A stretch of 64,000 bases of DNA from an uncultured Pseudomonadales bacterium (lineage in GTDB: Bacteria > Pseudomonadota > Gammaproteobacteria > Pseudomonadales > Balneatricaceae). The notes below the pieces were generated by a model. That model was not told where the DNA came from. It saw only the letters and a list, made by a program, of their open reading frames with translations, and did not search any database. The stretch spans positions 396,262 to 460,261 of the forward strand of contig CALSNA010000005.1 of NCBI GenBank assembly GCA_943787595.1. Direction: 5' to 3'. Position 1 is the stretch's first letter, and the number at the start of each line of letters is the position of its first letter. Positions 37,321-62,705 of the stretch are shown piece by piece. Both the position numbers and the translations under genes were made by a program.

Positions 37321-37324
37321 ACCA

Positions 37325-42306: not shown

Positions 42307-42948
42307 ATGCGCCACACTCATACACAGACAAAACCATGTTGGCAAACTAATACTGTAGCCAGAAAATACCCGTTCAAGCAACTATTTAACGTCACTGTGC
42401 TGACAACAATTGCATTATTAATGATGACTGCCAGTGCATTTGGGCTTAATTTAGAAGGCAATGCTAGTTTTGGTCAAATTAGCAATCAAGTAACTGTAAC
42501 AGTCAAAGGTAAATTGGATTTAAAAACTGAGTTGCCCGGCAGTACACAAAGGATTTGCATGCTGGATCGGTCGACAAGCCCAGCTGTAAATGTAACGATC
42601 ACAGCCGCAAATAATTATAGCACCTGTCAGTACAACTCTATGAGAACATCAGCATTAAAGCAAAACTGGCACTTCGTATTGTTCACAATAACGTCCATAT
42701 CCGGCAGTGCAACTACAGATACCACTACAACCACCATACTGTTGCCTACGGCATTGATAAGGGAAAATGAGTTTTATGAAATGGCACTCTACGATAAGAG
42801 GCATGTACAAATTAAATGGGCGACAGCTACCAGTAGTATCCCTGAAGAATTTATAGCTCAAGGTGCCGAAAATATTAAGGCAGATGTCGAAGTAAAGGTA
42901 TCAAAAATAAGAATAGACGGTCTATTTAGTAAGCAGGAAATATTATAG
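42307..42948 (+). CDS. Secreted protein of a novel three-member family, copy A
   Basis: 213 residues, no known family recognised. A long basic leader plus hydrophobic segment (about residues 28-44) ending TASAFG suggests signal-peptide export. The mature part has NQVTVTVKGKL (60-70), LKQNWHFVLF (117-126), TTTTILLPTAL then YEMALYDKRHVQIKW (140-171) and the C-terminal SKIRIDGLF (199-207). The same blocks occur in order in the genes at 60034 and 60869. Two Cys in the mature part (84 and 107) could pair, but the other copies lack them. Mostly predicted beta strands, Thr/Asn rich. ATG 42307 has AGGAA upstream; an earlier ATG at 42280 is possible. A terminator-like hairpin lies about 150 bases downstream. 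Confidence 0.8.
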   Translation: MRHTHTQTKPCWQTNTVARKYPFKQLFNVTVLTTIALLMMTASAFGLNLEGNASFGQISNQVTVTVKGKLDLKTELPGSTQRICMLDRSTSPAVNVTITAANNYSTCQYNSMRTSALKQNWHFVLFTITSISGSATTDTTTTTILLPTALIRENEFYEMALYDKRHVQIKWATATSSIPEEFIAQGAENIKADVEVKVSKIRIDGLFSKQEIL

Positions 42949-43096
42949 TCCATCTCATAATAACCAATGGCCCTGCTCCAGGGCATCTACTGATATTAGA
43001 CAGTACACCTCTGTAAATGTCAGACAGCAGAGACACGATTTCCTGAAAGTGTTAACAAGGTCTTTGCAAGAACCTTGAGCAAAGGCTGCATTACTT

Positions 43097-43128
43097 TGCC
43101 CCTGGGGCATGAATGGGGCAGTTTTTTT
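43097..43128 (+). terminator. Candidate rho-independent terminator after secreted copy A
   Basis: Stem tgcccc (43097-43102) with ggggca (43115-43120), followed by g and seven Ts. Only six pairs, but GC-rich and correctly followed by a T run. It lies about 150 bases after the copy A stop and before the convergent LysR remnant. Confidence 0.5.
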
Positions 43129-43174
43129 ATTTTTCATGCCGATAAGTCTTAGTGTTGCTATATTGATAAACTTA

Positions 43175-44035
43175 TCATACCTCCATTTTATCCCAGAAGG
43201 GTAGTCCCCTAAACCGATCTGTTAAAAAATCAATAAATTGTCTACAGCGCTCTCGTAAAAAACGGTTTCCTGGATAGACGACATAAGCACTCATTTCAGG
43301 TAACTGATAATTATTTAACAGAGCAACTAGTTTTCCATCTGCGAGCTCCTGATAAGTTAGGAAGGTGGGTAATATGTTAAACCATGGCCTTTTAAAGCCA
43401 TTTTTTTAAGAAAATCTCCATTATTGGCGGCTACTTTTGGTGTCATTCAATAACCCATACTCTAAAAACGCGCGATTCATGAGTTCTGAAGGAATTTTAG
43501 GTGTGCCAAACTGATTCAAATAATCAGGACTCGCGCAAAAGACATGGCGAATAGACGTAAGCCTCTTAGCCTGTAAACTGGAGTCGGGTAGATTTCCGAT
43601 ACGAATAGCAAGCTCAAACCCCTCTGCAAACAAGTCAACATGGCTATCAGTAAAATCGACTTGAAAGCTAAGGTCACTGTGCTTTTTAGCATATTCACTG
43701 ATTAATGGGCTTAAATGCATTAATCCAAACGACAGTGGCGCAGATATCTTTAGTGTGCCTTCTGTTCGCGCCTTATTGCCAGAAGTCTGTTCATTGAGTT
43801 CACAAACTTCGTCCAGAATATTTTGGGTGCGTTTGTAATAGAGCAAGCCTGCTTCGGTAAGGCTTGAGGTACGGGTGGTGCGATGGAGTAATTGAGTCCC
43901 GAGTCTCTTTTCAAGATCCATTAAACGTCTACTGACTGCTGATTTAGCCATGTCGAGTTGTTCAGCGGCCTTGCTGATTCCCCCTCCTGCCTCTACGATG
44001 CGCACGAACATCGCCATATCTTCTAGCTGGCCCAT
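43175..44035 (-). pseudogene. LysR-family regulator, YhaJ-like, broken by two frameshifts
   Basis: The first 190 or so codons from 44035 are intact: HTH ISKAAEQLDMAKSAVSRRLMDLE (in parts, about residues 20-42) and the first half of the effector domain. Then the frame shifts: the main frame stops after LEYGLLNDTKSSRQ, the next piece (VAANNGDFLKKMALKGHGLT) is in a second frame, and the end (ILPTFLTYQELADGKLV ... GLPFWDKMEV, stop at 43175-43177) is in a third. Joined, these give a normal 285-290-residue LysR protein. It is divergent from doxX; in E. coli the LysR gene yhaJ lies close to yqjF (DoxX) and yqjG, so it was probably their regulator. Confidence 0.9.
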
Positions 44036-44140
44036 TATAGTTCTCTACATAAGAACTATGATTTTCGATCATCCATGTTTATTCTCCTGAAAGCAATCTT
44101 TATTATTCTAGTCACAATCTAATCATTGAGGAAAATAATC

Positions 44141-44527
44141 ATGAATCAAATACACACTTTTGCAGCACCAGTAGGCCGCTTACTGCTAGCAACGATGTTC
44201 ATTATGGCGGGATTAAACAAGATTGGGGGTTATGCCGGAACACAGGGTTATATGGAAGCTATGGGGGTTCCAGGAGTTCTGCTGCCGCTAGTCATCGCAT
44301 TACAGGTTTTGGGTGGACTAGCCGTACTTGTCGGTTATCAAGCTAGATTGACAGCCCTGGGGTTAACTGGCTTTTGTGTTTTATCGGCTGTGCTTTTCCA
44401 CAATGACTTTTCTGACCAAATGCAAATGATGAGCTTTATGAAAAACATCACGATTGCAGGTGGTTTCTTAATCATTGTTGCACACGGTGCTGGTGGCTTT
44501 TCGCTTGATAAGCTTCGTGCAAAATAA
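44141..44527 (+). CDS. DoxX family membrane protein (YqjF-like)
   Basis: 128 residues with four hydrophobic segments: about 10-27, 45-66, 70-88 and 98-117. DoxX pattern: APVGRLLLATMFIMAGLNKI at the N-terminus, GVPGVLLPLVIALQVLGGLAVLVGY and HNDFSDQMQMMSFMKNITIAGGFL. GAGGAAAA precedes ATG 44141. The E. coli homologue yqjF is induced by quinone-like compounds through YhaJ. Here the gene is intact although both of its functional neighbours (LysR and the reductase) are broken. Confidence 0.9.
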   Translation: MNQIHTFAAPVGRLLLATMFIMAGLNKIGGYAGTQGYMEAMGVPGVLLPLVIALQVLGGLAVLVGYQARLTALGLTGFCVLSAVLFHNDFSDQMQMMSFMKNITIAGGFLIIVAHGAGGFSLDKLRAK

Positions 44528-44606
44528 GTCTGGATACCAGGAAGAAGTTAATAACGATTTTAATTATAGTATCGTCTAATTCACATCGAACATTGAGGTA
44601 TTGAGC

Positions 44607-45418
44607 ATGGGCTTACTAATTAAAGGTTGCTGGTATACGGATTAGTATGACACTGAATCAACTGACGGTAAATTTGTCCGTGAAGGGTCGCACTTCCGTA
44701 ACTGGGGCGCTATTATTTATATGTTTCTCTGGCATGCCTCTGGGACCACCACACCCTGATCTTCAGAGCAGTCAAGGGTCTGCAAGATATAATCACAGTA
44801 TCGGTTGTGAATGCATTGATGAGTGACGAAGGCTGGACGTTCGAGCCTGGGGATGGCGTGATTGAAGACTCGGTTAACCATAAAACCCGACTGCATGAAA
44901 TCTATACGATTGCTGATCCTGAATATACAGGCCGAGTCACTGTGCCCATACTCTGGGACAAAAAGCGCAATACTATTGTGAGCAATGAGTCTGCATAAAT
45001 CATCCGCATGCTCAATAGCGCATTTGATCATCTTGGCGCTAAAACAGGAGACTACTATCCTGAAAGCAGGCACAAAGAAATAGATGAACTTAATGCACTG
45101 ATTTATAACAGCATCAACAATTTTGTTTGCAACGACTCAATCGGCATACGATGAAGCAGTAAAAGACATGTTCGGTGTGTTAGACAGGCTTGAACAGCGG
45201 TTGGCTAAACAGCGTTATTTGAGTGGTAGCAACATCACTGAAGCCGATTGGTGTTTGTTTACAACGCTAATCCGTTTTGATGCTATTTATGTGGTCCATT
45301 TCAAATGTAACCTAAAATGTCTACGGGACTACCCTGCGTTGACTGATTACCTGCGCGTCTGTATCAGCAACCGGGTATCGCCGACACGGTAAACATCAGC
45401 TATATCAAGGTTCACTAG
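44607..45418 (+). pseudogene. Glutathionyl-hydroquinone reductase (YqjG/ECM4-like), degenerate
   Basis: From ATG 44607 the protein starts MGLLIKGCWYTD, hits a stop, then continues YDTESTDGKFVREGSHFRNWG. Further pieces in shifting frames match the family: CLWDHHTLIFRAVKGL, where the family has CPWAHRT with the catalytic Cys; DEGWTFEPGDGVIEDSVNH; GRVTVPILWDKKRNTIVSNESA; a stop; then IIRMLNSAFDHLGA, DYYPESRHKEIDELN; and the C-terminal GST helix region YLSGSNITEADWCLFTTLIRFD and YHxNLK-like FKCNLKCLRDYPAL. At least one missense loss in the CPWAHR motif, several stops and frameshifts make it non-functional. It lies 79 bases after doxX, as yqjG follows yqjF in E. coli. Confidence 0.9.
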
Positions 45419-46002
45419 TACCAGTCACACACCAGTATTAACCCGACACAGATTGTTCCAGCAGGACCAGAGCTGAATTTTAGAGGCCAACATAACCGAA
45501 ACCATCTTATTTAGGGTTAGGAAATAAAGAAGAATAAATTAAATACCCCGTTACTCCAAGAAAGGCGTGCTAATGAAACGTATGTATTGCTAATACCCTT
45601 TAGTACTGAAGAATAGTCATTATCTCGGTACTTGGGGTAAAGCTATGCAAGTATTTTAATCTTCTTTAAGGTGTCAAGATCAATGGATAATCCAACAGCA
45701 TTAAAGCCAAAATGGTTACTGCCTGCTTTAAGGCGGAAGATGATGCGGTGCTATCGTTAGATTGGTCAATCCATAGGGTCGATATGGATATAAAAAAATA
45801 GACCGGCTACTTCGCTTCAAAAGCTGGTGGGCCAATCACACCCAAGTTGAGCGTCTACGACGTGATCAAGAAGAGCCGCCTCTACAACGTCATAACCAAT
45901 ACAACTTCAATTAGACAGTAGGGCATGCATTGCCTAACAAACGATAATACTCTATAAACGACTTCAAGACACATTCATGGCGTCAACAAGTGCTGAGTCT
46001 TC
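45419..46002. other. Gap with an unidentified coding remnant
   Basis: About 580 bases between the reductase remnant and the isomerase-like gene. A plus-strand frame 45712-45921 (69 sense codons, one internal TAG at 45799) reads VTACFKAEDDAVLSLDWSIH, then after the stop TGYFASKAGGPITPKLS and YDVIKKSRLYNVITNTTS. It looks coding-like and is probably the end of a decayed gene whose family I cannot name. Confidence 0.35.
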
Positions 46003-46686
46003 TTATTTGTCTCCAGAAATTATTCTGTGCCCTGCTTGCAGGGTTGCTAAAGCACTATCGATAACGGGTATTTTCAGGCTTTTACTCAAGTCATCTGCAA
46101 CACCCGCGCCCTTCAAATTTGTGCACATAATCATGATCACATCCGGGGCATTTTTAGCCAAGCTTCTGACTGTCTCCTCAATTACATCGGGAGAAATCGA
46201 TGCGAAGTCATTACTCACTGTTTTACCCAGGTTTAGGCCCACCGGTCTTGGAAAACCCAATTTTACATAGTTATCAAGAATGCGGTTGTGAACATCATCT
46301 GTATATGGCGTCAAAATTGCAATCCGTCTGGCATCTAAATCGGTCATCTTTCGGTTCATTTCGAGCATGCAGGTTGTGGTAGGGATAGCCGTTTCCTGCT
46401 CAACCAGTTTGCAATAAGTCTCATCGCGTTCGAGCCCAAGCCAACCAGCAGAAGTGCCACCCCATACAATCGCATCTACTCGTGCATCGCAGAGCTTCTG
46501 CGCAGCAATTAGTTGCTCCCGAATCTCAAACTGCTCCAAAGACTTCGCATCAAGCTTGATTTCACTGACACTCAAGCGTGAGAAATGCACGGTATAATTT
46601 AAATCCCTAAAACGCTGCGCCACTAAAGGTTCAATCACAACATTTGAAGACGGGATTACGATTCCAATACGCCTAACTGCATACAT
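46003..46686 (-). CDS. Maleate isomerase / arylmalonate decarboxylase-like protein (Asp/Glu racemase superfamily)
   Basis: 227 residues. The start RIGIVIPSSNVVIEP matches the maleate cis-trans isomerase group. In two-cysteine members a catalytic Cys follows the second strand; here that loop reads VWGGTSAGWLGLE with no Cys, while the C-terminal Cys is kept (IMIMCTNLKGAG). One-cysteine members include arylmalonate decarboxylase, so a decarboxylase or other non-racemising role is possible. ATG 46686 lies two bases after the SDR stop (46689), so it is translationally linked; an upstream 28-residue extension within the SDR gene is unlikely. Third gene of ADH-SDR-this. Confidence 0.83.
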   Translation of the reverse strand: MYAVRRIGIVIPSSNVVIEPLVAQRFRDLNYTVHFSRLSVSEIKLDAKSLEQFEIREQLIAAQKLCDARVDAIVWGGTSAGWLGLERDETYCKLVEQETAIPTTTCMLEMNRKMTDLDARRIAILTPYTDDVHNRILDNYVKLGFPRPVGLNLGKTVSNDFASISPDVIEETVRSLAKNAPDVIMIMCTNLKGAGVADDLSKSLKIPVIDSALATLQAGHRIISGDK

Positions 46687-46688
46687 AC

Positions 46689-47471
46689 TCAGATGATCGA
46701 TCGGCGCGAGGCGATACCGCCGTCCACCGTAACAATGGTTCCAGAGATGTAACCTGAACGATAGGAGCATAAAAACGCGATAACATCAGAGACTTCACGT
46801 TTGTGGGCAGGACGTGCAAGTGGATAGTTTTTCTGCAGCTTTCCAGCATGACTCTCGTCACCCATATCTTTGATCGCACGTTTCTTCAACATGTTATAAA
46901 TGCGGTCAGTGTCAACTGGACCAGGATTGACTCCAACCACACGAATATTATCGTCAAGACTAAATGCACCAAGTGCGCGTGTAAAACCCATGAGACTGGC
47001 ATTGCCTGATGAACCAGCGATATATTTTGGATCCAGTACTTCTCCACCATTGCCAATGTTGTTGATAATAACACCACCTCCTGCATGCTGCATTTTGGTA
47101 TAAAATTCGCGGCACATGCCAATATAGCCGTAGACTTTCAAATCCCAGCCATTCCGCCAACTTTCCTGATCCAAGTCCCATAAATCTCCGCCAGGAATGG
47201 CGCCTGCATTATTGATGAGTATGTCAACTTGTTTAATTGCTGAGCTAAGCTGCTCAATAGCACCATCAGCGGTCAAATCCAACGGATGGAGGGTTACGCT
47301 CACATCGCTGATTTTAGCAATACGGGCTTTCAAAGCCTCCAGTTTATCCCTGCTACGCGCTGTCAAATGCAAGTTTACGCCTTCGTCAGCAAAAGTTTCA
47401 GCAAGATGTTCACCAATACCCATAGAGGCGCCAGTGATGATTGCGGTCTTACCGCTCAGATTAAGTTCCAA
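46689..47471 (-). CDS. Short-chain dehydrogenase/reductase with non-canonical active site
   Basis: 260 residues. Classical SDR fold: cofactor motif TGASMGIGEHLA (about residues 14-25), NNAG (about 87-90) and the C-terminal SGYISGTIVTVDGGIA. The catalytic region departs from the rule: where Ser and YxxxK are expected the sequence is IINNIGNGGEV and YIAGSSGNASLMGFTRALG. Aligning ASL with the usual AAL puts Gly and Asn at the Tyr and Lys positions. It may therefore use another mechanism or not be a reductase. It lies nine bases after the ADH stop and two bases before the isomerase-like start. Confidence 0.88.
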   Translation of the reverse strand: MELNLSGKTAIITGASMGIGEHLAETFADEGVNLHLTARSRDKLEALKARIAKISDVSVTLHPLDLTADGAIEQLSSAIKQVDILINNAGAIPGGDLWDLDQESWRNGWDLKVYGYIGMCREFYTKMQHAGGGVIINNIGNGGEVLDPKYIAGSSGNASLMGFTRALGAFSLDDNIRVVGVNPGPVDTDRIYNMLKKRAIKDMGDESHAGKLQKNYPLARPAHKREVSDVIAFLCSYRSGYISGTIVTVDGGIASRRSII

Positions 47472-47480
47472 TTCATTCTC

Positions 47481-48488
47481 CTACCGTAAGTCTAATACTG
47501 TGCGGCCTTCAACTCGACCTTCCATAAGACAGGCAAGTGCATCATTGATTTTTTCAAAGCACATTGTGTTGATCATACCCTTCACGTTTCCCCTGGCGGC
47601 AAGCGCCAAAAGTTCGTTCATCTCTTGCCGGTTAGAAGCGGAGCTGCCAACAACCTTAAGCCCACGTTCGACCAACTCATAGGTATAGAATGCCAGTTGA
47701 TCCGCAGGCACAGCTGTTAGAACAATCGTTGCGCGAGGGTTACAAGCCGCTAACATCAATGGCCAGGTCGCACCAACTGGCGCAAAGTTTACGCACCCTT
47801 GCGCACCACCCAATGCCTGGATTACAGCACCAGCGTTCTTGTCTGCCACTACAACCTCATCAGCACCCAATGCCTTGGCTGTAGCCAGCTTCTCCTCACT
47901 GATATCTACTGCGATCACTCGAACACCCGACAGCTTGGCAATTTGAATTGCATATTGTCCTAACCCTCCCAGACCAAAGATAGCTAATGTTTCTCCAGTT
48001 TGAACACCTGTTTTCTTGTAAGACGCATAAGCAGCCGCACCAGCGCACATAAGTGGTGCAGCCTCGACTGGGCTGATACATTCAGGAATACGATTGAGCC
48101 ACTCCTTACGCATACATACATATTCTGCAAAACAGCCACTAACGGAAAACCCGGTGGCATCAAAATCAGGGCAATAGTTTTCCCCACCAGTCAGACAATC
48201 GCGACAATGACCACAAGCTCCAAATACATAACCGATTCCTACGCTATCCCCAATCCCAAGCATCCCGCCTTCAGAACCAAGCGCCACAACGCGCCCTACC
48301 CCTTCATGTCCCATAATCAAAGGCAATGGATTGGGGGAGGCGTGTTCCCCTTTCAAGATATGTACATCAGTGAAGCAAACTCCACTGGCTTCAATCTTAA
48401 CAAGAACTTCATCTGACTTCGGGATAGGCCGTGGGACATCGGCAATTTTTAACGGTTTGCCATATTCCATCAGCAATGCGGCTTTCAT
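47481..48488 (-). CDS. Zinc-dependent alcohol dehydrogenase (MDR family)
   Basis: 335 residues from ATG 48488 (MKAALLMEYGKPLKIADVPRP); the frame extends 16 codons upstream without a better start. It oxidises alcohols with NAD(P). Catalytic zinc: Cys in SGVCFTDVH and GHEGVGRV. Structural zinc cluster CGHCRDC...YC (about residues 93-108). Rossmann motif FGLGGLGQYAIQIAKLSG (about 172-189) and NAD-type Asp in VIAVDIS. First gene of a three-gene minus-strand operon and divergent from the aldehyde dehydrogenase, so alcohol-to-aldehyde-to-acid flow is plausible. Confidence 0.95.
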   Translation of the reverse strand: MKAALLMEYGKPLKIADVPRPIPKSDEVLVKIEASGVCFTDVHILKGEHASPNPLPLIMGHEGVGRVVALGSEGGMLGIGDSVGIGYVFGACGHCRDCLTGGENYCPDFDATGFSVSGCFAEYVCMRKEWLNRIPECISPVEAAPLMCAGAAAYASYKKTGVQTGETLAIFGLGGLGQYAIQIAKLSGVRVIAVDISEEKLATAKALGADEVVVADKNAGAVIQALGGAQGCVNFAPVGATWPLMLAACNPRATIVLTAVPADQLAFYTYELVERGLKVVGSSASNRQEMNELLALAARGNVKGMINTMCFEKINDALACLMEGRVEGRTVLDLR

Positions 48489-48839
48489 AGTAAGTGGATT
48501 GGTCAAGATATCTCTCCTTTTCTTTAGGTATCGCAAAGTTCTAGCATCTTGTACAAGTCAGGAAATTTCTAACCGTTTAATTCTACTTTTAGTTTAAATA
48601 TAATGGTACTGTGGCAAACTTTGTATGAAAATCAAACTACATGGTATCATCAAGTTATTGAATTTTGCCAGACTGGGTTTCTTACTTAAGCTATGGTTTT
48701 TCGATGGTTTGAAGCGGGTTAGGTGCTGAAACCCAAATTTTGGGTCTAGTGGTGCTGTTTGCGGATAGTAAGCACCATTGCTCCTTTTCTTCTGGTCAAA
48801 AGCAAACTCAACCCATGAGTTTACAACAGACTGTGTCGC
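48489..48839. other. ADH upstream region with a possible IS3 end fragment
   Basis: It contains ttctacttttagtttaa (48581-48597), identical to 62113-62129, where it is part of the left end of an IS3-type remnant. This suggests a small leftover insertion-sequence terminus about 95 bases upstream of the ADH start. No gene. Confidence 0.4.
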
Positions 48840-49345
48840 ATTGACTCGCTGGAATATGTGTGGACATTAGTTTGGCTTTAGCCTTTCTTTGGCAGATATG
48901 AGAACAGTACCTATTGACTCTGAGCCAAACCCCATAAGCTCGTATGACATACACCGTGTCAGCCCAGACTGTCTGCAAGGAATTATATTTATCAGCATCC
49001 TTCTGCCTCATTATTGGCCTTTTTGACTTTGCTATACTTGACTATCCAGTATGCATCCATATCTTTTTGAGCTACTTTGGCAGGTCTTCATGCCAGATTT
49101 TAGCTTCACCGGCCTTGGCCAAGCATTTCTTCCCTGGTCATCTGTTGCCCAGAGGCAGCAATCAATAAGATATCCACGCGTTGAACTACCACAGAAAGGT
49201 ATTCTCTATCCTTTAGAATGCTTCAAATAAAGTGAATAGCTGCTTTAGGACACCTGCCTGTTTCAGGCTCTCTCCAAATAACCAGATGGGCTTGGCTTCA
49301 GGCGATGATCATTCATATCAGCCTGAAGCATCTCCAGATCAATCG
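48840..49345 (-). pseudogene. IS5-family transposase remnant
   Basis: Minus-strand conceptual translation with several stops and frame changes gives, in order: AKPIWLFGESLKQAGVLKQL (cf. the IS5 IS1031-group DANTIWLFREQL-x-KAG), a RQQMTRE/KAGEAK stretch, AQKDMDAYWIVKYSKVK (cf. QKDTDARWTVKYSKAK with a catalytic Asp) and SLQTVWADTVYVIRAYGVWL (cf. VWADTAYRSxENEAWL with the next Asp). It is clearly related and clearly dead. It occupies the intergenic region between the divergent ADH and ALDH genes. Confidence 0.78.
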
Positions 49346-49655
49346 TCAATCACTACTACATACCCAACTCTGCTTGATAGCGATGAATCAAGTTACTACA
49401 CAAAATAATGGATTTTAGAAGTGATTATCCTGTCTAAAAAATTCTAGGGTTACCTCAGTTTTGCGTCCATTGTGCTGGGTTAGATACATCTTGGTAAGCT
49501 GTCCAAATCACTTCAGATTCAAACTTCAATCAAAATATGAAATATTTGTGAAAAAACTACAATAATTACCCAATAAAGTATGGATGTTTGCAATTTATAC
49601 TTGCATATTGTCAATTATTCCTTCTAGTATACCGAAACAAATTCTGGAGGCACCA

Positions 49656-51170
49656 ATGACAACATTGAGCGATGAATTTCTGATCCCTGGTACAAATAAA
49701 GGTATTTTCTATGGAGGTAAGTTCCAGAAACCTAACCATAGCGCCGTGATTAAAGTCTTGAATCCAGCCAAGGCACAACTCTTTACTACCGTTCCTGATG
49801 CTACAGCCGATGACGTGCAAGCCGCTGTAAGCGCAGCCCGTTCAGCCTTTGCCAGTTGGTCAGAGCTTGATTCTCTGGACCGCTCGAGATATCTGCATAA
49901 ATTTGCCAATGTACTTCGAACCAATATAGCTTCACTGGCTCTACTAGAATCTACAATCACTGGCCGTTCCATCCGAGAAATGAATGCCCAAATGGCACGA
50001 ATTCCAGAATGGCTGGAATACTTTGCCAGTATCGCTATCGGGTTAGAGGGAGAATCTAATGTCGTCAAAGGTGGCTATGTTACGATGACTCACTACGAGT
50101 CTCTTGGCCCTGTTGCGTTGTTGACACCCTGGAACCATCCTGTTCTGATTTTGGTTAAAAAGTTGGCTGCGGCGCTGGCAGCTGGTAATACATGTGTTAT
50201 CAAACCTTCGGAATTAGCACCAGTCTCACCTCTCGTTCTCGCTGCTCTAGCAACAGAAGCGGGACTGCCAGATGGGGTTGTCAATGTGGTCACTGGAGGG
50301 CCAGCAACCGGAGCAGCACTGTGTGCAGCTGATGACATTCACTACATTGACCTTACCGGTGGTACTGAAACTGGGCGTAAGGTAGCCGGTGTTGCCGGAG
50401 AGCGCCTGATCCGTACGACTATGGAATTAGGTGGAAAAACGCCTATCATCGTTTGCGAAGATGCCGATATTGAAGCCACAATTGCTGGCACATTATTCTC
50501 TGCATTTGTTGCTTCCGGGCAAACATGTGTATCTGGTGCTCGCTTTCTTGTGCACGACAAAATATATGATCATTTTGTCGAAGGACTTGCTGGACGCGCT
50601 GAACAGATCAGGATCGGCGATCCTCTGGATAAAGCCACTCAGATGGGCCCAGTAATTTCCCAGAGATCCAAAGAACGGTGCTTAAGCATGATCGCACAAG
50701 CTAAAACAGAAGGTGCTAAAATGGTTGCGGGTGCAGGTCCTCTAGATCTGCCTAAAGAGTTTACCAATGGCTTTTATGTACGTCCAACTGTGTTCAAGGA
50801 TGTCGAACCACACTGTAAACTGTTCTTAGAGGAAGTATTTGGCCCAGTTATTTCGATCACTCGATTCCACAATGACGATGAGGCGATAGTAATGGCCAAC
50901 ACCGGCACTTTTGGTCTCGGTGTTTCGATCTGGTCACGTGATATTACTCAGGCTCATCGGCTTTCACTCAAAGTGCGTGGTGGCGTAGTTTGGCTAAATG
51001 ATCATCACCGCAATGACCCGCGCTCAGTCTGGGGTGGCGTTCGAGATAGCGGTTTTGGCAAAGAGAATGGATGGGACGCTTTGCGGGCATATTTAACCAA
51101 AAAGTCAGTTATTGTCCGTACTGCAGCCGGTCATGATGATTGGTTCAAAGGCTCAGCCAGATACGGGTGA
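49656..51170 (+). CDS. Aldehyde dehydrogenase (NAD(P)-dependent)
   Basis: 504 residues. It oxidises an aldehyde to the acid. Catalytic Glu in TTMELGGKTPIIV (about residue 259) and catalytic Cys in ASGQTCVSGAR (about residue 293); cofactor-side TPWNHPVLILVKKLAAALAAG (in parts) and LTGGTETGRKV; EEVFGPVISI near the C-terminus. ATG 49656 has a perfect TGGAGG six bases upstream, so it is chosen over 49584. Divergent from the ADH operon across an IS5 remnant; probably part of one catabolic route, substrate unknown. Confidence 0.96.
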   Translation: MTTLSDEFLIPGTNKGIFYGGKFQKPNHSAVIKVLNPAKAQLFTTVPDATADDVQAAVSAARSAFASWSELDSLDRSRYLHKFANVLRTNIASLALLESTITGRSIREMNAQMARIPEWLEYFASIAIGLEGESNVVKGGYVTMTHYESLGPVALLTPWNHPVLILVKKLAAALAAGNTCVIKPSELAPVSPLVLAALATEAGLPDGVVNVVTGGPATGAALCAADDIHYIDLTGGTETGRKVAGVAGERLIRTTMELGGKTPIIVCEDADIEATIAGTLFSAFVASGQTCVSGARFLVHDKIYDHFVEGLAGRAEQIRIGDPLDKATQMGPVISQRSKERCLSMIAQAKTEGAKMVAGAGPLDLPKEFTNGFYVRPTVFKDVEPHCKLFLEEVFGPVISITRFHNDDEAIVMANTGTFGLGVSIWSRDITQAHRLSLKVRGGVVWLNDHHRNDPRSVWGGVRDSGFGKENGWDALRAYLTKKSVIVRTAAGHDDWFKGSARYG

Positions 51171-51251
51171 ATATATGAACCTGCCCTTGTCTACTGAAAC
51201 CAGGTTAATACATTCTGTGTGCGGCAGCTTACCGACTACCAAGTCCGTGTT

Positions 51252-51420: not shown

Positions 51421-51429
51421 CTATTTAGC

Positions 51430-53334: not shown

Positions 53335-54015
53335 ATGTTTAATTTTATTATTAAGTCGGGTTTAGTGTGGTGTCTGGCAACCATGGCCCTGGCACATCAA
53401 TCCATTAGTTTTTCTCAAGCTAAAAGGCATCTGCTACAAATCTATCAGGATCATCCAACGACTTTTTATTGCAACTGTAATTATAGTCTTAAAGATAGCA
53501 AACCCGCACCTAATTGGAATAGTTGTGGATTCACTCCACGTAAACAGGCGAAACGCGCTGCCCGCATTGAATGGGAGCATGTGATGCCAGCCTATCAATT
53601 TAGAAACCAGATGCCATGCTGGAAAGAAGGAGGCCGCAAAGCGTGTCACAAGGATGAAGCCTTTCGTATGATGGAGGGTGATATGCATAATCTGGTACCG
53701 ACCATTGGTGAAGTGAATGGTGATCGGTCCAATTACCAGTATGCGCTCATTGAAGGAGAGGATCGGGTGTATGGTGCCTGTGATGCTGAAGTTAATTTTC
53801 AATTTAAACAGTTTGAACCGACGCCAAACGTTCGAGGCAATATTGCAAGAATTTACTTTTATATGGCTGACCAGTATTTAGTCGAATTGGATGTATCACA
53901 ACGTATTATGTTTGAGCAGTGGGCTCTGGAAGATCCAGTTGATGATTGGGAGATTGAGCTTAATCATCGCATTGCTGCCATCCAGGGCAACTTGAATCCT
54001 TACGTACGTGAGTAA
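53335..54015 (+). CDS. endA: Endonuclease I (periplasmic/extracellular nuclease)
   Basis: 226 residues. A non-specific endonuclease that cuts double-stranded DNA after export. The signal peptide (about residues 1-20, ending ALAHQ) is clear. EndA pattern: FSQAKRHLLQIY, TFYCNCNYS, CGFTPRK, RAARIEWEHVMPAYQF (the HxxP active-site region), DEAFRMMEGDMHNLVPTIGEVNGDRSNYQY and RGNIARIYFYM. Six Cys fit disulphides in the periplasm. Full length, with GGAG before the ATG, although flanked by dead insertion sequences. Confidence 0.95.
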   Translation: MFNFIIKSGLVWCLATMALAHQSISFSQAKRHLLQIYQDHPTTFYCNCNYSLKDSKPAPNWNSCGFTPRKQAKRAARIEWEHVMPAYQFRNQMPCWKEGGRKACHKDEAFRMMEGDMHNLVPTIGEVNGDRSNYQYALIEGEDRVYGACDAEVNFQFKQFEPTPNVRGNIARIYFYMADQYLVELDVSQRIMFEQWALEDPVDDWEIELNHRIAAIQGNLNPYVRE

Positions 54016-54193
54016 AAAAGTGCTGGAAAATTATGGGTAATATTACATGGCAGTTTAGATACAAGCTAAAAAAACTGCCTTGTAAAACAGAATATATTAA
54101 CCATGTTGCCTGGCAAGCAACTGAATTTAGCTGACCAGTTAGGTTATCTCTTTACAGCCTGAGAAATGATGGGAGTATCCTGAGATACAGGTT

Positions 54194-54466
54194 ATGACTC
54201 TAAAGAAGCTGTTAATGACGGTAGTTTTATCTTGTCCTGTGAAAAAATTCGTCGCGGGCCCAATCCAAAAGCTCGAATTTGACTCAACCCCGAATTGTCA
54301 GTTACCCAGAATACTATTCATGAACCAGCATGACTTTCGATGCAAGACCTGTGGTGATATTGACAAGTTTTATCCTGAAAAGTATTTTTCTAATAACGGG
54401 TCAATGGTCAAACTAGGCTGTAGTATTCATATTAGGGTCAAATGCACTCTTTCTGAGTTTAATTAG
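54194..54466 (+). CDS. Small hypothetical protein (doubtful)
   Basis: 90 residues, no family recognised. The N-terminus (KKLLMTVVLSC) resembles a weak signal or lipoprotein leader, and the middle has a CxxC pair (FRCKTCGDID) plus later Cys residues (LGC, VKC). ATG has GGTT only, no good ribosome-binding site. It lies between endA and an IS3 remnant, so it may be chance or a leftover. Confidence 0.25.
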   Translation: MTLKKLLMTVVLSCPVKKFVAGPIQKLEFDSTPNCQLPRILFMNQHDFRCKTCGDIDKFYPEKYFSNNGSMVKLGCSIHIRVKCTLSEFN

Positions 54467-54522
54467 CCATCAGGTGCAGTATCCATAAATTTATACCCAT
54501 TATAACCCAACTTAAAAGTTCT

Positions 54523-54776
54523 GGTTAATGGACTTAACGACTGTTTTGGAGCAACTGCCAATAGCGCTATTAGAGAGCAATTGGTGATAAGGCCATAGCC
54601 ACTGGATAACATTATTCTGAACGTCTGCAATGGACTAAAAGTTATGATAATTCAGGCAAGCATAGCGCACCGTAAGGTGGTAACGTTCAATTTAAGCGTT
54701 TTTTTACGGCCAATGCAGCTGTATATATTGCAGCGCAATATCATGTTTGCCTGCTTCACTGTCAGCGGCTTACACC
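54523..54776 (-). pseudogene. IS3-family OrfB C-terminal remnant
   Basis: Minus-strand translation: EAGKHDIALQYIQLHWP, stop, KNA, stop, IERYHLTVRYACLNYHNF, stop, SIADVQNNVIQWLWPYHQLL, SNSAIG. It parallels the IS3 end HxIxLQYIQPGKPQQNAYIERYNRTVRYDWL...SIxEVQxxxTQWLWTYNxxRPNxAIG. The catalytic Glu (YIERY) survives, but three stops kill the frame. Confidence 0.85.
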
Positions 54777-55951
54777 TGATATATGAGCGCCCATGATTAT
54801 GGCTTATTTTCTAAATTTTAATATTATAGTAAAACATTTAATATGATACGCATATCCCTTCTGTGAGAAGAGTGTTAACTAGACAACCTCAATGGCCAAA
54901 TTATCATCATTGTAGCTATCAATGATACTTAACAAGCAATGACTGTATCTATTAGCGGATTTGTACCATGTATCCCAGATAATTTGCTGGCTGTGAGCCA
55001 GTTGTTCAGTGCCATCGTTCACCACAATTTGCTTTACCTGTTGCCTCATCTATTTACTGTTTATACTATGTGTTCTGTAGCGTTCACTACTCAAGGGCTT
55101 CATACCACCAGCTTCTGAATTGCGATAGTACGTATCGTGAGAGATAAAGCCAGATACAAGTTCAGCTAGTGGATTCATTACGACCATGATTGCCTTCCAC
55201 CCCATGAACCAAGCATAACCAGTTTCGTATTATACATACACCAATGGTATCAGCATGCAAAAATTACTGTTTCAGTATAGCTTTATTATGGCTTCCAGAT
55301 TGCCATTGACCTGGTTGTTGAGTGGTGTTTTTTCCATGCATGCCAAATGCTTACACACAGCTATTTTTTTAATTGTGATCAACATTAGTTAATTTAATAT
55401 GGATTACAATGGGTATAGTTAGCAATCAGATATTGTTTTGGCAAACGTTGATATTCAGGATATTCAGGCCTTTACAGCGATATTTATGGGCACTGATTAT
55501 CAAGGGATTAAAGACTAATCAGCCTTGGCTCTAATTACAATTGGCTTAATGCAGCTTTATTCAAGAGTGTAGCCTGCTTGTGGCTGGCCTATAGTTTGGC
55601 TGATATAAAGGCTAGGCCTAGCATCTTTTGGCAGGCTTATTTGCTAGAGAGCACCCTGTTAAGTCCCTGAGACTGTTTTAGTGCCACTGGCCTTAAATCT
55701 AGCATTGGACTGATAGTGGGTTGATAGCCTGGCCTGGGTAATATTGCAATGGCTGTATTAGGTGCTGGCGATGGTGTTTTAACCTCATGTAAGGAAGGCT
55801 AGGCTAGCCAGTTTTTTGCTGCTGCTTTAAACTGGTTTTACTTTCTTGTATAGAACTAAAGAACTAAATTGGATTACCCTGAATGTTTCATATAGGCTTG
55901 GTATATAAAGGAAAAAATAATTACACGCATTGTGTATTAGCAGAATAAATC
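54777..55951. other. Gene-free stretch upstream of uvrC
   Basis: About 1.2 kb. In many gammaproteobacteria gacA/uvrY lies directly before uvrC; no response-regulator sequence is visible here on either strand. No tRNA, no other ORF of interest. AT-rich, probably decayed DNA. Confidence 0.5.
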
Positions 55952-57802
55952 ATGCATACAAATGGAATGAACCAGCCCGATACTTTTAATATTGATGATT
56001 ATCTGCAGCAGTTGCCTCAGCGGCCTGGGGTATATCAAATGCTGGGAACAGATGATGAAGTGCTGTATGTTGGTAAGGCAGTTAACCTGAAAAATCGGGT
56101 TAGCAGTTATTTCCGTGGTAAATCTCACAACGCAAAAACCCATCTTATGGTTGGCCGCATTGTGCGAATTGAGATTACCATCACCCACAGTGAAGTAGAA
56201 GCACTGCTGCTAGAAAACACTTTGATCAAGCGCATTAAACCACGCTTTAATATTGCACTACGGGATGATAAGTCCTATCCGTTTATCTACATTTCAGTAG
56301 CTGATCAATATCCAGCATTACAATACATGCGTGGCAAGCAGTGCCGTAAGGGACAATACTTTGGGCCTTATCCTAATGCTAATGCAGTCAGGGAAAGTCT
56401 TAATCTGTTACAAAAAATTTTCTTGTTACGCCAATGTGATAACAGTTTTTTTCAAAACCGCAGCCGGCCTTGCCTGCAATATCAAATAAAGCGCTGTAGT
56501 GCACCTTGCACCGGTTTAATTACCCCACAACAATACCGTAATGATCTCCACCATGCACAATTGTTTTTGCAAGGTAAAAGCCAGCAATTATTACACGAAC
56601 TCAGGGAAGCAATGCATCAGGCTGCAGAGCAACTTGATTTTGAAACAGCAGCCCGTAAGCGTGACCAGTTAAGCCATTTGCGGCAGGTTCAAGAACAACA
56701 ACATGTCATATCCAGTCGTGGCGACTTAGATATCTTGGCGATTGCCATGCTGGGAGCAGTTCACTGTACTCATCATTTAATGGTTCGTGGTGGACGGGTT
56801 GTCGGCAACAAGAACTACTTTCCAAAAATTCGGCTTGAAAACAAGCCCAGTACAGTGATGAATGCCTTTCTTGGCCAGTTCTATCTGGTGGGTAAGCAAC
56901 ACGCTATTCCAGATGAAATCATTGTGAATGTAATGGATACCGACACAACTGCCATTGCTAAAGCAATCCAGTTTCAAGGTCACAAAAATCTGCGGATTAC
57001 CAGTAATGTCAGAGGCCAACGAGCCAACTGGCTTAAATTGGCGATGACCAATGCAGAACAAGCACTAGTTGTGCATCAAGCCAGCCGGGAGAGTTATATG
57101 ACCCGTTTGCGGTCATTACAGATACTGCTGGACATGGATCAGCTACCAGAGCGACTTGAGTGCTTTGATATCAGTCATAACCGTGGTGAAGCTACAGTCG
57201 CTTCCTGTGTGGTGTTTGATCAAAGTGGCCCCAGAAAAGTGGATTACCGTCTATTCAATATCAAGGGAATTACACCAGGAGATGACTATGCAGCCATGGA
57301 ACAGGCAATTAAGCGGCGTTATACTAAAGTAAAACAAGGTCAGGGAAGCCTGCCTGACCTTTTGGTTATTGATGGAGGCCAGGGTCAACTGGGACGTGTG
57401 ATGCGGACTATGGCTGAACTGCAATTACAGGATCTTGTTGTATTAGGCATAGCCAAAGGAGATACCCGTAAGGCAGGTTTCGAGCGTATTTTCAATGCCT
57501 GGAGCGGTGCTGAGATAACCTTGCCAGCAGACTCATCTGTATTGCATCTGATACAACATATACGCGATGAGAGTCATCGTTTTGCCATTTCAGGTCATCG
57601 CCAACAACGTGCACGAAAATGCACTCAGTCGAAATTGCAACAGATTGAAGGGATCGGGCCACAACGCCGACGAGCGCTATTGCAATATTTTGGTAGTGTG
57701 GCCGCAGTTAGCAAAGCCAGCATTGATGAATTAACTAAAGTCAAAGGATTTAGCCGCTCGTTAGCTCAACATGTCTATGCAACGATGCGGGGTGAGTTGT
57801 GA
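55952..57802 (+). CDS. uvrC: Excinuclease ABC subunit C
   Basis: 616 residues, the usual UvrC length. It makes both incisions in nucleotide excision repair. The N-terminal GIY-YIG nuclease (RPGVYQMLGTDDEVLYVGKA, with NRVSSYF, about residues 23-55), the cysteine region CLQYQIKRCSAPCTG, the UVR motif (ETAARKRDQLSHL), the RNase H-like nuclease core with CFDISHNRGE and LLVIDGGQGQL (Asp residues), and the C-terminal helix-hairpin-helix (IEGIGPQRRRALLQYFGS) are all present. ATG 55952; a second in-frame ATG at 55967 is possible. Confidence 0.98.
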   Translation: MHTNGMNQPDTFNIDDYLQQLPQRPGVYQMLGTDDEVLYVGKAVNLKNRVSSYFRGKSHNAKTHLMVGRIVRIEITITHSEVEALLLENTLIKRIKPRFNIALRDDKSYPFIYISVADQYPALQYMRGKQCRKGQYFGPYPNANAVRESLNLLQKIFLLRQCDNSFFQNRSRPCLQYQIKRCSAPCTGLITPQQYRNDLHHAQLFLQGKSQQLLHELREAMHQAAEQLDFETAARKRDQLSHLRQVQEQQHVISSRGDLDILAIAMLGAVHCTHHLMVRGGRVVGNKNYFPKIRLENKPSTVMNAFLGQFYLVGKQHAIPDEIIVNVMDTDTTAIAKAIQFQGHKNLRITSNVRGQRANWLKLAMTNAEQALVVHQASRESYMTRLRSLQILLDMDQLPERLECFDISHNRGEATVASCVVFDQSGPRKVDYRLFNIKGITPGDDYAAMEQAIKRRYTKVKQGQGSLPDLLVIDGGQGQLGRVMRTMAELQLQDLVVLGIAKGDTRKAGFERIFNAWSGAEITLPADSSVLHLIQHIRDESHRFAISGHRQQRARKCTQSKLQQIEGIGPQRRRALLQYFGSVAAVSKASIDELTKVKGFSRSLAQHVYATMRGEL

Positions 57803-58702
57803 CAGGTTGATCAGAAAAAATACAGCCATAGCATATGGATGCTTGCCTCTGATGTGACATTTAATCTTGAGAAAAAAATCTGGGCCATTCTGGTTAAGGA
57901 CTTGACCCTTAACTCAAAACTAAAAGTTAACGCTCATAATTTATATGCACAATCGGCTTATTTAAACATACAGCCAATTCATCTAATTTTGCAGAAGCCC
58001 CCTGTGGAACATACTGGAATTCTGCACGATTATGGGCGCATACCACGACCAGGAACTGGTCAAGGGCAATGGTATAAACCAGCTGACTGGCAAGTGTCGT
58101 AACCTGATTAGTTGCAAAAATTGAACAGATAGAATGGTATTACGAGCTGTGCTGAATAAGACCACCTGCCCACAACCAGCAACATACTACAATAACGCAT
58201 TGCGTAAATTGGGTATCTTCTTATCCAGTAACTGGTGTGTGATCAATCTGGCTACGTTATAATCTAGTCTTTGCAAAAACTCTTAAATACGCTTATAACA
58301 AAGTATTTGGCCACATAATGATGTTAATTGACGAAATATTACTTGCTGTAACCACTGTCACGGGAACACCTACAGTGGTTTCGCCAAACCATGTTTTTCG
58401 GCAGGCACTATAGCTAACAGTCCAGACAAATGGATGACACAATGTTTATTATTGAAACCCATAACAAGTGGATAAATTGCCAGATTAAGGCCATGTATCT
58501 ACATCATTATGTAGTAAATTACATTTCATGGATTTAGTATATGTCATTAACCCATTGATTTGATTTGTGAATTTATTTGTAATGCACTGAATGCCATTAT
58601 TCTAACAAACTGACCTATGTATGCTTGTTCACAGGCAATTCAGCCATTAGCATAGTGTTAGATAACTACAACCACCAGGATCAATAATCATCTGGATTAT
58701 TA
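57803..58702. other. Gene-free stretch between uvrC and pgsA
   Basis: About 900 bases where uvrC and pgsA are normally nearly adjacent. Short ORFs (57839-58102 plus, 57983-58165 minus) have no recognisable features. No insertion-sequence motif was found. Confidence 0.5.
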
Positions 58703-59251
58703 ATGAATATTCCCAATTCATTAACACTATTGCGTATATTCCTGCTACCAGTCATTGTGCTGGTTTACTACCTGCCTTTGGATTCCAGTTATACTTGGGC
58801 TGCTGGTCTGTTCCTAATGGCCGCCCTAACTGATTGGCTAGATGGTTATTTGGCCCGGCGGCTGCATCAAGCAACTAGACTTGGGGCTTTTCTAGACCCA
58901 GTTGCTGACAAGCTTACAGTCAGTTTGACATTGTTATTACTAGTGGATGAATATGATGCAATATGGATGACTTTGCCCGCCATGGTTATTGTCGGTAGGG
59001 AAATTGTCATTTCAGCACTGCGTGAATGGATGGCTCAAATGGGCCAGCGCTCATCAGTGGCAGTCTCATATATTGGTAAATTTAAAACTGCAGTGCAGAT
59101 GGTGTCTATAGTGTTACTTTTATCTACTCCACCAGATACTCATGTTGCCATTGTGGGAATCACATTACTTTACATAGCTACTGTGCTTACCTTGTGGTCT
59201 ATGTCATTGTACTTATACGTTGCCTGGCAGCAGTTGCGGCAGTTAAATTAA
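58703..59251 (+). CDS. pgsA: CDP-diacylglycerol-glycerol-3-phosphate 3-phosphatidyltransferase
   Basis: 182 residues, as in E. coli. It makes phosphatidylglycerolphosphate, the first committed step to PG and cardiolipin, in the inner membrane. The CDP-alcohol phosphotransferase motif is complete: DWLDGYLARRLHQATRLGAF then LDPVADK (about residues 45-71). Hydrophobic segments lie at about 8-25, 28-45, 77-105, 128-145 and 150-175. It follows uvrC, as usual, although after an expanded gap. The tRNA genes that follow pgsA in E. coli are not seen. Confidence 0.97.
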   Translation: MNIPNSLTLLRIFLLPVIVLVYYLPLDSSYTWAAGLFLMAALTDWLDGYLARRLHQATRLGAFLDPVADKLTVSLTLLLLVDEYDAIWMTLPAMVIVGREIVISALREWMAQMGQRSSVAVSYIGKFKTAVQMVSIVLLLSTPPDTHVAIVGITLLYIATVLTLWSMSLYLYVAWQQLRQLN

Positions 59252-59469
59252 TTAAGCTGGGAAATCCATCTGACAAGCATAAAAATCCAGGCCACTTGAA
59301 ACCTGTAAATTCTTACACGGGAACATGTGTTTCTTGCACTAGAATAATTTATGTAGTGGCCAACTGATTCAACACCGATTCTGTCTTTCTAACGCCTATA
59401 CAGATTCCATTGTGCCAACAATATTCATTCACGCTGGCTTATATCGGGGTGTATCCGTTAGTAGCACAG
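59252..59469. other. Short gap after pgsA
   Basis: No terminator or tRNA recognised. It leads into an IS3 remnant. Confidence 0.35.
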
Positions 59470-59628
59470 TCTTTGGATAAAATTTACCGCTGGCCTACGC
59501 CAGGTAGCGTTAGAATGAAACTACACCTGAGGCCTGCTATCTGCTTGATCAGCCTTATCCATGACTTTAACAGATCAGTTAAAGCCTGGGTCATCAGCAT
59601 GCATCTGGCATTACCTGACAATATATAG
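59470..59628 (+). pseudogene. IS3-family OrfB middle fragment
   Basis: The open frame reads SLDKIYRWPTPGSVRM, then ICLISLIHDFNRSVKAWVIS and MHLALPDNI. It follows the IS3 OrfB pattern WSLDFMHDxLxDGRSVR...FNVIDDFNREALxIEVDxSLPAxRVI. The first catalytic Asp (SLD) and the HDFNR Asp remain but surrounding residues are degraded and the flanks are missing. Confidence 0.65.
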
Positions 59629-60033
59629 ATAACACCACGAGTAACCTGAAACTAGGATGTCTTAAACCGGAACATTCTTTTAACATATTTCTGTTGATGT
59701 AGAATTGATCCCTGAATGCGTTACAGAAGATTTACCATATAGCGGTTTAACTTACTACATAGCTTATCTACAATCATCAGTATTATGGCAGTCGCACACT
59801 AATTTTGTAATATCTATACTAATCCGTATAATTTTGATTTCTGCTTGGCTATTGAAACATTTTTTACTGGCTATTCTAAAGTAAAGACTTCAATTAGGCA
59901 GTTGGAGGCACTTGCATTAAATATTTCTACGATATGCATGTTTGATGCACAATCACCTGCTAATGCCATACTTATTTGGTGCTATAATTTGGTTTAGTTG
60001 ATATACGCCACTAATACTACAGGAAACAGACAC
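59629..60033. other. Upstream region of secreted copies B and C
   Basis: About 400 bases. A TATAAT (59983-59988) lies 45 bases before ATG 60034, a spacing similar to the TATAAT 36 bases before copy A. No -35 match. No gene. Confidence 0.4.
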
Positions 60034-60726
60034 ATGATATATATCAATAAAACATCATTAAAATCGTGGTTCACAACTGGCGGTGAAACCAGACAAACCC
60101 AATTTCTGAAATCATGCCTGATAGTGCCTTTACTAACAGTGGTCACATTGCTGCTAACCGCAAATGCCCAGGGAAATCTTAGCACCGATCAAGACGCTAA
60201 TTTAGGAACAGCTGAAAATACAGTAACCGTGACGGTGAATGGTAATTTGAATGCGACTGGTATGATTTCTGGATTACCACTACCATCAGGCACAGGACTA
60301 CAGTCAGTCGTTATAGAAGAACTGGTAAACGTACCATCTTCAGGATTAACCGTAGAGCAATGGCTGGCAAACGATGGAAGCTATGTGTATGATTATACGG
60401 AGTATGATGTAACCGTTAACCTGAATTTAGACACAGTAAAGGAAAATTGGTATTTTTTACTCATTTCTGTTGATACTGAAGGCACTGTAATACAAAACCG
60501 GAAACCTACTCTCACTGGAAGTGACTTTAATACTACAACTATGATAATTCCTACAGACACCATAATTGCAGGTCACAAACATGAAATGGCAAAGCACCAT
60601 GCAAGATTTGCAGAATTTTTTTGGATTGTCCCGAATTCAAATTCACTACCTGATTCAATGCAGTTTGATTTCGATCATTGTGCACCAACAAGAATAAATG
60701 TTTATGGCGTATTAAGAAAGAAATAG
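60034..60726 (+). CDS. Secreted protein of a novel three-member family, copy B
   Basis: 230 residues. The hydrophobic segment (about residues 27-44) ending LTANAQG is a good signal peptide with cleavage near ANA-QG. The family blocks follow: DANLGTAENTVTVTVNGNL (54-72), VKENWYFLLISV (135-146), NTTTMIIPTDTI (166-177), HEMAKHHARFAEFFW (183-197) and TRINVYGVLRKK at the C-terminus (219-230). It has an extra Gly/Pro/Ser-rich insert after the first block compared with copy A. AGGAAA precedes ATG 60034; an in-frame TTG at 59998 is less likely. Tandem with copy C (142-base gap). Function unknown. Confidence 0.82.
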   Translation: MIYINKTSLKSWFTTGGETRQTQFLKSCLIVPLLTVVTLLLTANAQGNLSTDQDANLGTAENTVTVTVNGNLNATGMISGLPLPSGTGLQSVVIEELVNVPSSGLTVEQWLANDGSYVYDYTEYDVTVNLNLDTVKENWYFLLISVDTEGTVIQNRKPTLTGSDFNTTTMIIPTDTIIAGHKHEMAKHHARFAEFFWIVPNSNSLPDSMQFDFDHCAPTRINVYGVLRKK

Positions 60727-60868
60727 GTAGTTTATTAACCAACAACATAGTGCTGAACACACACAATTTCACATTGTCTTATATCATAATACAATTTATT
60801 ACACACGATTCAGCCAATTGATTCTGGTTAGTGACAACTGGGTTGTAAAAGATTATGGAAATAGAGAA

Positions 60869-61498
60869 ATGACTAACACCAGTAAAATACAAAAAAAATT
60901 ACAGCTTGAAATTGGCTACTTAGTGAGTCAATTTCAGCAACTGAAGCAGCAATGTATCTATTGCCTAGTAACAATAGTGATGTTACTAATAACACCTATG
61001 GGATGGTCACTAGAACTGGAATCCAGTCAAGAAGCAATTTTTGGAAAACCCAATGATTCAGTGACTTTTACAGTGAATGGCGAACTGCAAACGCAGTCAC
61101 TCGTTGTTTTTGACGAATTTATTTCAAAAGAAAATACAAATAACTCTTTAATAGCCAACAGCATTGGTCATTACGTTAACACTGTCACCGTTAACGACAG
61201 TTCTATTTCCATAAGTAATTTGCAAAATAGCTGGCATTTTTTAATAATCTTGATTAAAACGAGTGTAAAGGACAGGCATCACTTAAATAGCTTACCAGCA
61301 CCACACACTAATTCTACAGTTATATCCACGGCAGAAATAGAGGTAGGTAGATATTATGAAGTGGGGCAATACGAAAAAAGACGCCTTTTATTTCAGTGGC
61401 CCAACCAGAGTACGCTCGAATTTAAAGATTCTACCCCAGACCTGGCCGATAAATTATATATAACTAATATAAATATAACGGGATTCTTAAGGAAATAA
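60869..61498 (+). CDS. Secreted protein of a novel three-member family, copy C
   Basis: 209 residues from ATG 60869, with a possible start at the TTG 60818. A hydrophobic segment (about residues 28-46, ending PMGWSLE) serves as signal peptide or anchor; it is preceded by a Gln/Lys-rich 25-residue stretch. Family blocks: QEAIFGKPNDSVTFTVNGEL (54-73), LQNSWHFLIILI (118-129), NSTVISTAEI (148-157), YYEVGQYEKRRLLFQW (162-177) and TNINITGFLRK (199-209). No Cys in the mature part. It diverges from B more than tandem copies of recent origin would. Confidence 0.8.
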   Translation: MTNTSKIQKKLQLEIGYLVSQFQQLKQQCIYCLVTIVMLLITPMGWSLELESSQEAIFGKPNDSVTFTVNGELQTQSLVVFDEFISKENTNNSLIANSIGHYVNTVTVNDSSISISNLQNSWHFLIILIKTSVKDRHHLNSLPAPHTNSTVISTAEIEVGRYYEVGQYEKRRLLFQWPNQSTLEFKDSTPDLADKLYITNINITGFLRK

Positions 61499-62697: not shown

Positions 62698-62705
62698 TTT
62701 ATGGA

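What the first reader, a model, noticed from the sequence alone, without database searches (positions are those of the whole stretch)
42307..61498. Novel family of three secreted beta-rich proteins
The genes at 42307-42948, 60034-60726 and 60869-61498 encode proteins of 213, 230 and 209 residues that share no obvious known domain yet show the same ordered blocks: an N-terminal export segment, a block with VTVTVxGxL (VTFTVNGEL in one), an NWxF or SWHF block, a Thr-rich strand followed by a HEM/YEM...KR...W block, and a C-terminal IxIxG-hydrophobic tail. Block spacing is kept in all three while overall sequence has diverged strongly, which implies selection on a fold. They sit in the accessory part of the window near decayed DNA but are themselves intact. 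A surface, adhesin-like or toxin/effector role in host interaction is possible but unproven.
Basis: partly seen in the sequence, partly recalled or inferred. Interest (0 to 1): 0.85.

Follow-up and report, generated by a model that had tools for sequence, protein, structure and literature searches.

The report
Lineage-restricted exported beta-rich protein trio
Three genes in this bacterium encode members of one protein family that matched no family library searched and was found otherwise only in a few unnamed sequences; the proteins are likely exported from the cell and predicted to be rich in beta strands, and what they do is unknown.

Summary
The products of 42307-42948 (A), 60034-60726 (B) and 60869-61498 (C) are homologous (BLASTP E 1e-10 to 1e-14; mature-region scores 16-19 s.d. 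above shuffles). Each starts with a charged segment, a hydrophobic stretch and, by eye, a cleavage site. No family library or PDB sequence gave a convincing match. Three protein searches gave eight relatives besides the window's own, in three clades, one per paralog, so the duplications predate the split of these strains and all three copies were kept. Genome searches found no convincing member elsewhere. AlphaFold models of A and B are weak (pLDDT 52 and 40) but agree on strand order in the C-terminal half; no known fold is matched securely. Wrong in the finding: spacing is nearly constant only from NWxF to the tail (80-83 residues); V-block to NWxF varies (56-74). My reading: an orphan family of likely exported, predicted beta-sandwich proteins. 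A surface-binding role is inference; adhesin, toxin and filament roles are untested.

The parts
42307..42948 (+). paralog A, 213 aa
   Evidence: intact ORF, homologous to B and C
60034..60726 (+). paralog B, 230 aa
60869..61498 (+). paralog C, 209 aa, in tandem with B (142 bases between them)
42307..42438 (+). A: long charged n-region, hydrophobic stretch, predicted cleavage after ASA (residue 44)
   Evidence: hydropathy maximum 2.06 at residue 26; cleavage site read by eye (inferred)
60034..60168 (+). B: the same, predicted cleavage after ANA (residue 45)
   Evidence: maximum 2.58 at residue 28; site read by eye
60869..61009 (+). C: the same, predicted cleavage after GWS (residue 47)
   Evidence: maximum 2.39 at residue 29; site read by eye
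42490..42516 (+). A V-block VTVTVKGKL
60223..60249 (+). B V-block VTVTVNGNL
61061..61087 (+). C V-block VTFTVNGEL
42664..42675 (+). A NWHF block, start of a predicted strand after a short helix
60445..60456 (+). B NWYF block
61229..61240 (+). C SWHF block
42775..42786 (+). A YEMA block
60580..60591 (+). B HEMA block
61355..61366 (+). C YEVG block
42907..42927 (+). A C-terminal IRIDGLF strand
60694..60714 (+). B C-terminal INVYGVL strand
61469..61489 (+). C C-terminal INITGFL segment (strand by analogy; C was not modelled)
42556..42627 (+). A: Cys84 and Cys107, aligned in 5 of 5 A-type proteins; a disulphide is inferred
42294..42299 (+). AGGAAA, likely ribosome-binding site of A
   Evidence: by eye
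60021..60026 (+). AGGAAA, likely ribosome-binding site of B
   Evidence: by eye
60857..60862 (+). GGAAAT, likely ribosome-binding site of C
   Evidence: by eye

Best explanation
The three genes are paralogs of one orphan protein family that these searches found only in this bacterium and in a few unnamed sequences, and their products are likely exported by Sec, predicted to fold as beta-sandwiches, and would likely act outside the cytoplasm as surface or secreted binding proteins. Shown: common ancestry, three paralog clades each with relatives in other strains, a hydrophobic N-terminal segment after a long charged stretch, and no convincing match in the libraries searched. Predicted: cleavage by signal peptidase I, a beta-sandwich or jelly-roll-like C-terminal half, and a disulphide in the A type. 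Inferred: the proteins fold in the periplasm and stay there or cross the outer membrane; a type II secretion system is a possible route, since secretin and ATPase genes that look like gspD and gspE lie together in the genome. Binding to a surface, glycan or partner protein is the least certain step. Rough step confidences: family 0.98, export 0.85, beta-sandwich 0.6, extracellular binding role 0.3.
For: Homology. Three copies in the genome and no fourth at E 10. Relatives: 8 protein clusters besides the window's own C (P0002), in three supported clades of A, B and C type; window proteins lie 0.03-0.31 changes per column from their own type (1.27 for A to P0009) and 3.0-3.4 from the other types in the pairs that one search lists (A-C is not listed). 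The B-C pair is probably kept in two other strains: P0005 and P0006 share the longest-contig length 4907, P0001 and P0004 share 1935 (inferred from equal lengths). Hydropathy maxima of 2.06-2.58 in the N-terminal stretch of A, B and C, against at most 1.25 after residue 46, with net charge +3 to +5 before the stretch. The N-terminal segment occurs nowhere else in the genome at E under 0.15. Cys pair in 5 of 5 A-type proteins. Predicted secondary structure agrees in 84 of 97 aligned C-half columns between the B and A models; 0 of 96 circular shifts reach this, the best reaching 78, but both models used nearly the same alignment. Among the weak structure matches, sandwiches and jelly rolls are frequent. 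A secretin gene followed by an ATPase gene is in the genome (named gspD- and gspE-like by eye).
Against: Both models are poor (mean pLDDT 40.1 and 51.7), C was not modelled, and no Foldseek match reached E 0.001 in PDB or BFVD. The two models draw partly different neighbours: capsid jelly rolls for B, LolA, lipocalins and unrelated folds for A. No signal-peptide predictor was available. Nothing shows binding. P0007 has no N-terminal segment, so it may be incomplete or miscalled. Neighbouring genes give no functional hint: a pgsA-like gene (by eye) upstream of B, a protein without a Pfam match upstream of A.
Confidence: 0.45

Rival explanations
1. The proteins are subunits of an extracellular filament or tube: beta-sandwiches that polymerise by donating a strand to the next subunit, as archaeal cannulae may do.
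For: Weak structural matches of the B model to CanA (7uii, E 0.29) and a Pyrodictium cannula fibre (9h8b, E 0.51). CanA is a non-canonical jelly roll with an N-terminal signal and two homologous co-subunits, CanB and CanC (passages of PMC12326000). Here too there are three divergent, likely exported paralogs.
Against: Profile comparison with CanA/CanX gave probability 0.45 over 7 columns, within the range of 40 shuffled decoys (best 8.3, 1.1, 0.7) (a low-power test, since the CanA side was two rows of the C-terminal part). Picornavirus capsids and malectin rank as high. CanA is not among the 50 rows shown for the A model.
Confidence: 0.1
2. They are periplasmic or outer-membrane-associated housekeeping proteins of this lineage (ligand carriers or envelope factors), not secreted.
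Against: Those matches are insignificant, and none is among the 50 rows shown for the B model. No member in the 115 other genomes of the family, where a housekeeping role would predict some.
Confidence: 0.3
3. They are effectors or toxins that act on a host or on competing bacteria.
Against: No family match in Pfam, NCBIfam or PADLOC above cut-off; no immunity partner or catalytic residues recognised by eye; same-type relatives change slowly.
Confidence: 0.08
4. They are chaperone-usher pilins.
For: Size, predicted sandwich and a C-terminal beta strand.
Against: No usher gene found in the genome (0 of 1; of 14 control genomes E. coli rings); no pilin family above cut-off.
Confidence: 0.02

Closest known systems
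CanA/CanX cannula subunits of Pyrodictium
   Same: exported, CanA 182 residues, known jelly-roll-like sandwich (predicted here), several paralogs
   Different: no detectable profile similarity (low power); archaeal; polymerisation not tested here
Phage tail-fibre and baseplate beta-sandwich domains (T4 gp9, monocin side fibre, phage K gp144)
Lineage-restricted (orphan) exported protein families
   Same: no homologs found outside a narrow set, likely signal peptide, intact and kept
   Different: three old paralogs with clade-specific features (Cys pair in A type only)

Membership tests
Lineage-restricted (orphan) family | no homologs outside a narrow lineage | tested here: met
   (8 relatives besides the window's own; one search scored only the 7990 candidates sharing most words); own only, 1 of 116 genomes of the family; own only, 1 of 390 of the order; 2 of 369 of the class, the second (E 0.0015) inside a sensor-kinase ORF; 2 of 57, the second E 0.017 with three stops.
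Lineage-restricted (orphan) family | intact frame kept across strains | tested here: met
   full-length relatives of each paralog, except P0007 which lacks the N-terminus
Sec-exported proteins | positively charged n-region, hydrophobic h-region, cleavage site | tested here: inconclusive
   hydropathy and charge fit; no dedicated predictor; sites read by eye; n-regions are unusually long (about 25 residues)
Cannula proteins (CanA) | sequence-profile homology | tested here: inconclusive
   probability 0.45, within the range of shuffled decoys; low power (two rows, C-terminal part of CanA only)
Cannula proteins (CanA) | jelly-roll fold | tested here: inconclusive
   weak models, insignificant matches
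Cannula proteins (CanA) | ion-driven polymerisation into tubes | not testable with these tools
   needs purified protein
Chaperone-usher pili | usher in the genome | tested here: not met
   0 of 1 (genome 96.9% complete)
Type II secretion substrates | T2SS in the genome | tested here: inconclusive
   secretin match E 1.1e-47 followed by an ATPase gene, named gspD- and gspE-like by eye; the other T2SS genes were not sought
Type II secretion substrates | export depends on the T2SS | not testable with these tools
   needs a knockout

The most novel reading that the evidence does not exclude
A, B and C are subunits of a new class of bacterial extracellular fibre or tube, built from beta-sandwiches by strand donation without chaperone and usher, with one major and two minor subunits.
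Probability: 0.08. Interest if true: 0.65.

Novelty: new member of a known kind. Interest (0 to 1): 0.35.

Why it matters
Exported orphan families are where lineages keep lineage-specific surface biology (general knowledge, not tested here), and many stay unstudied because no profile finds them. This one offers a compact set: three old paralogs, slow change within each type, 15 invariant residues and a type-specific Cys pair. A structure of one member would show whether it is a new fold or a known one beyond sequence recognition.

Tried and rejected
CanA homology: suggested by ranks 7 and 13, tested by profile alignment and not supported, by a low-power test. Class-level match G735 (E 0.0015): lies inside, and in the frame of, a sensor-kinase ORF (kinase named by eye); about 0.6 matches this good are expected by chance among 369 genomes. 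Order-level match G046 (E 0.017): three stops inside. NCBIfam 'invert_tail' on B and P0005 (E 0.008 and 0.003; 16-18 bits against a cut-off of 37): covers the hydrophobic segment, taken as compositional. Pfam singles among the 11 members (best E 0.064; one PilA4 pilin match at E 0.13, two DUF4293 at best 0.16) are weak and taken as chance. Shared upstream motif: little beyond the ribosome-binding region aligns by eye. DNA similarity between the copies: no match between A and the B-C stretch better than E 0.79; the best direct match within the B-C stretch is E 0.13. Promoter- and terminator-like sites were not clearly more frequent than in shuffles. A wider set of proteins with the same N-terminus: none at E under 0.15. 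Horizontal origin by codon use: A 0.022, B 0.046, C 0.012 log units per codon against 0.014-0.111 in 28 neighbouring genes, and GC 0.40, 0.38, 0.35 against 0.40-0.49: low, but the genes are short; not decisive. Relatives by degenerate patterns: none (297 stretches of named genomes, 199 viral stretches). Phages (B only) and plasmids (A only) by tblastn: none. Rfam on the whole window: none. Paper searches concerned cannulae, orphan genes and secretion; the family has no name to search for, so they do not show that it is unpublished.
Full report
Observation. The ORFs 42307-42948 (A), 60034-60726 (B) and 60869-61498 (C) are intact and encode 213, 230 and 209 residues. They are truly related: BLASTP among the three gives E 8.6e-13 (A-C), 1.1e-10 (A-B) and 1.6e-14 (B-C), and the regions after the export segment score 125, 113 and 132 (A-B, A-C, B-C) against shuffle maxima of 53, 49 and 62 in 500 trials each. 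Identity is 23-30%. Their spacing is kept only in part: NWxF to the tail motif is 81, 83 and 80 residues in A, B and C, but V-block to NWxF is 58, 74 and 56. C has YEV in place of HEM/YEM, and B has AR where the others have KR.

Family size and spread. The genome (2,284,036 bases, 6 contigs, 96.9% complete) holds these three copies and no fourth at E 10. Three searches of 5.8 billion proteins (the last scored only the 7990 candidates sharing most words) found nine protein clusters; P0002 is the window's own C, leaving eight: P0001 and P0005 (B type), P0004 and P0006 (C type), P0003, P0007, P0008 and the diverged P0009 (A type). The longest contig of each of these eight is 1,454 to 8,242 bases, and none carries an organism name. 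The same profile found only the own genome in 116 genomes of its family (E 0.01), only the own genome in 390 of its order (E 0.001), and in 369 of its class the own genome plus one match at E 0.0015 that lies inside a sensor-kinase ORF. These sets overlap. In 57 relatives the one other match has three stops. Pattern scans of named genomes and of viral contigs gave no relative. In Pfam, PHROGs, NCBIfam and PADLOC nothing passed a curated cut-off where one exists, and the best E was 0.0033; the PDB sequences gave nothing at E 10.

Evolution. In the tree of 11 proteins the A, B and C types form three clades (support 99/98, 99/96, 100/99); the window's proteins differ from their own type by 0.03-0.31 changes per column (1.27 from A to P0009), and from the other types by 3.0-3.4 in the pairs listed. 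The duplications are therefore older than the split of these strains. Retention of three slowly changing copies argues for a function for each. dN/dS could not be measured, because the DNA of the relatives was out of reach. Equal longest-contig lengths suggest that B and C stay side by side in two other strains (inferred).

Export. A, B and C each have a positively charged stretch of about 25 residues, a hydrophobic stretch (maximum 2.06-2.58 over 15 residues) and, by eye, small residues fit for signal peptidase I; after residue 46 no stretch exceeds 1.25. Of the other rows, P0003 (1.73) and P0008 (1.98) have weaker stretches and P0007 none (0.49). No dedicated predictor was at hand. This N-terminus was found on no other protein of the genome at E under 0.15. 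Two cysteines are aligned in 5 of 5 A-type proteins; mature B has one cysteine and mature C none. The genome search found no usher and a secretin gene followed by an ATPase gene, gspD- and gspE-like by eye.

Source. The closest UvrC proteins in named genomes share 49-54% identity (the best 80 of 565 loci, a capped scan), many titled Pseudomonadales or Cellvibrio. The 16S rRNA gene matches the top listed record of the plasmid collection at 87.7%; one of 517 records falls in the 90-95% band but is not among the 20 listed, and this collection is a limited yardstick. The organism is thus a divergent gammaproteobacterium, likely of Pseudomonadales; its habitat is not known to me.

Function. I commit to likely exported beta-sandwich proteins with a surface or extracellular binding role, at 0.45 for the whole and about 0.3 for the role. 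A periplasmic role is the main rival. The filament reading is the most novel one not excluded; its only lead, CanA, was not supported by the profile test. I read passages of PMC12326000 on CanA; other papers were seen as search listings only.

Noticed in passing
window 62398-63275: Two genes of 27-28% GC (PQ-loop protein, OHCU decarboxylase family) against 40-49% in the 28 core genes measured; likely foreign DNA.
   Followed up: partly
window 63861-64000: A transposase gene start (HTH_Tnp_1, E 3e-10) cut by the end of the window, which is also the end of contig C5; the assembly breaks there.
   Followed up: no
window 43421-44035: LysR-type regulator whose substrate-binding domain matches only profile positions 3-109 of 209: truncated.
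   Followed up: no
L096 1486-2702: A second secretin, PilQ-like by eye, is split over two ORFs; described only.
   Followed up: no
L050 and L087: Contigs titled Klebsiella pneumoniae MAGs whose UvrC is among the 80 closest to this lineage (50% and 49%): probably mislabelled.
   Followed up: no
window 32596-41073: A methylcitrate-pathway run (prpB, prpC, an aconitase-like and a PrpF-like gene) followed by an acyl-CoA-synthetase-like gene; the last three named by eye.
   Followed up: no
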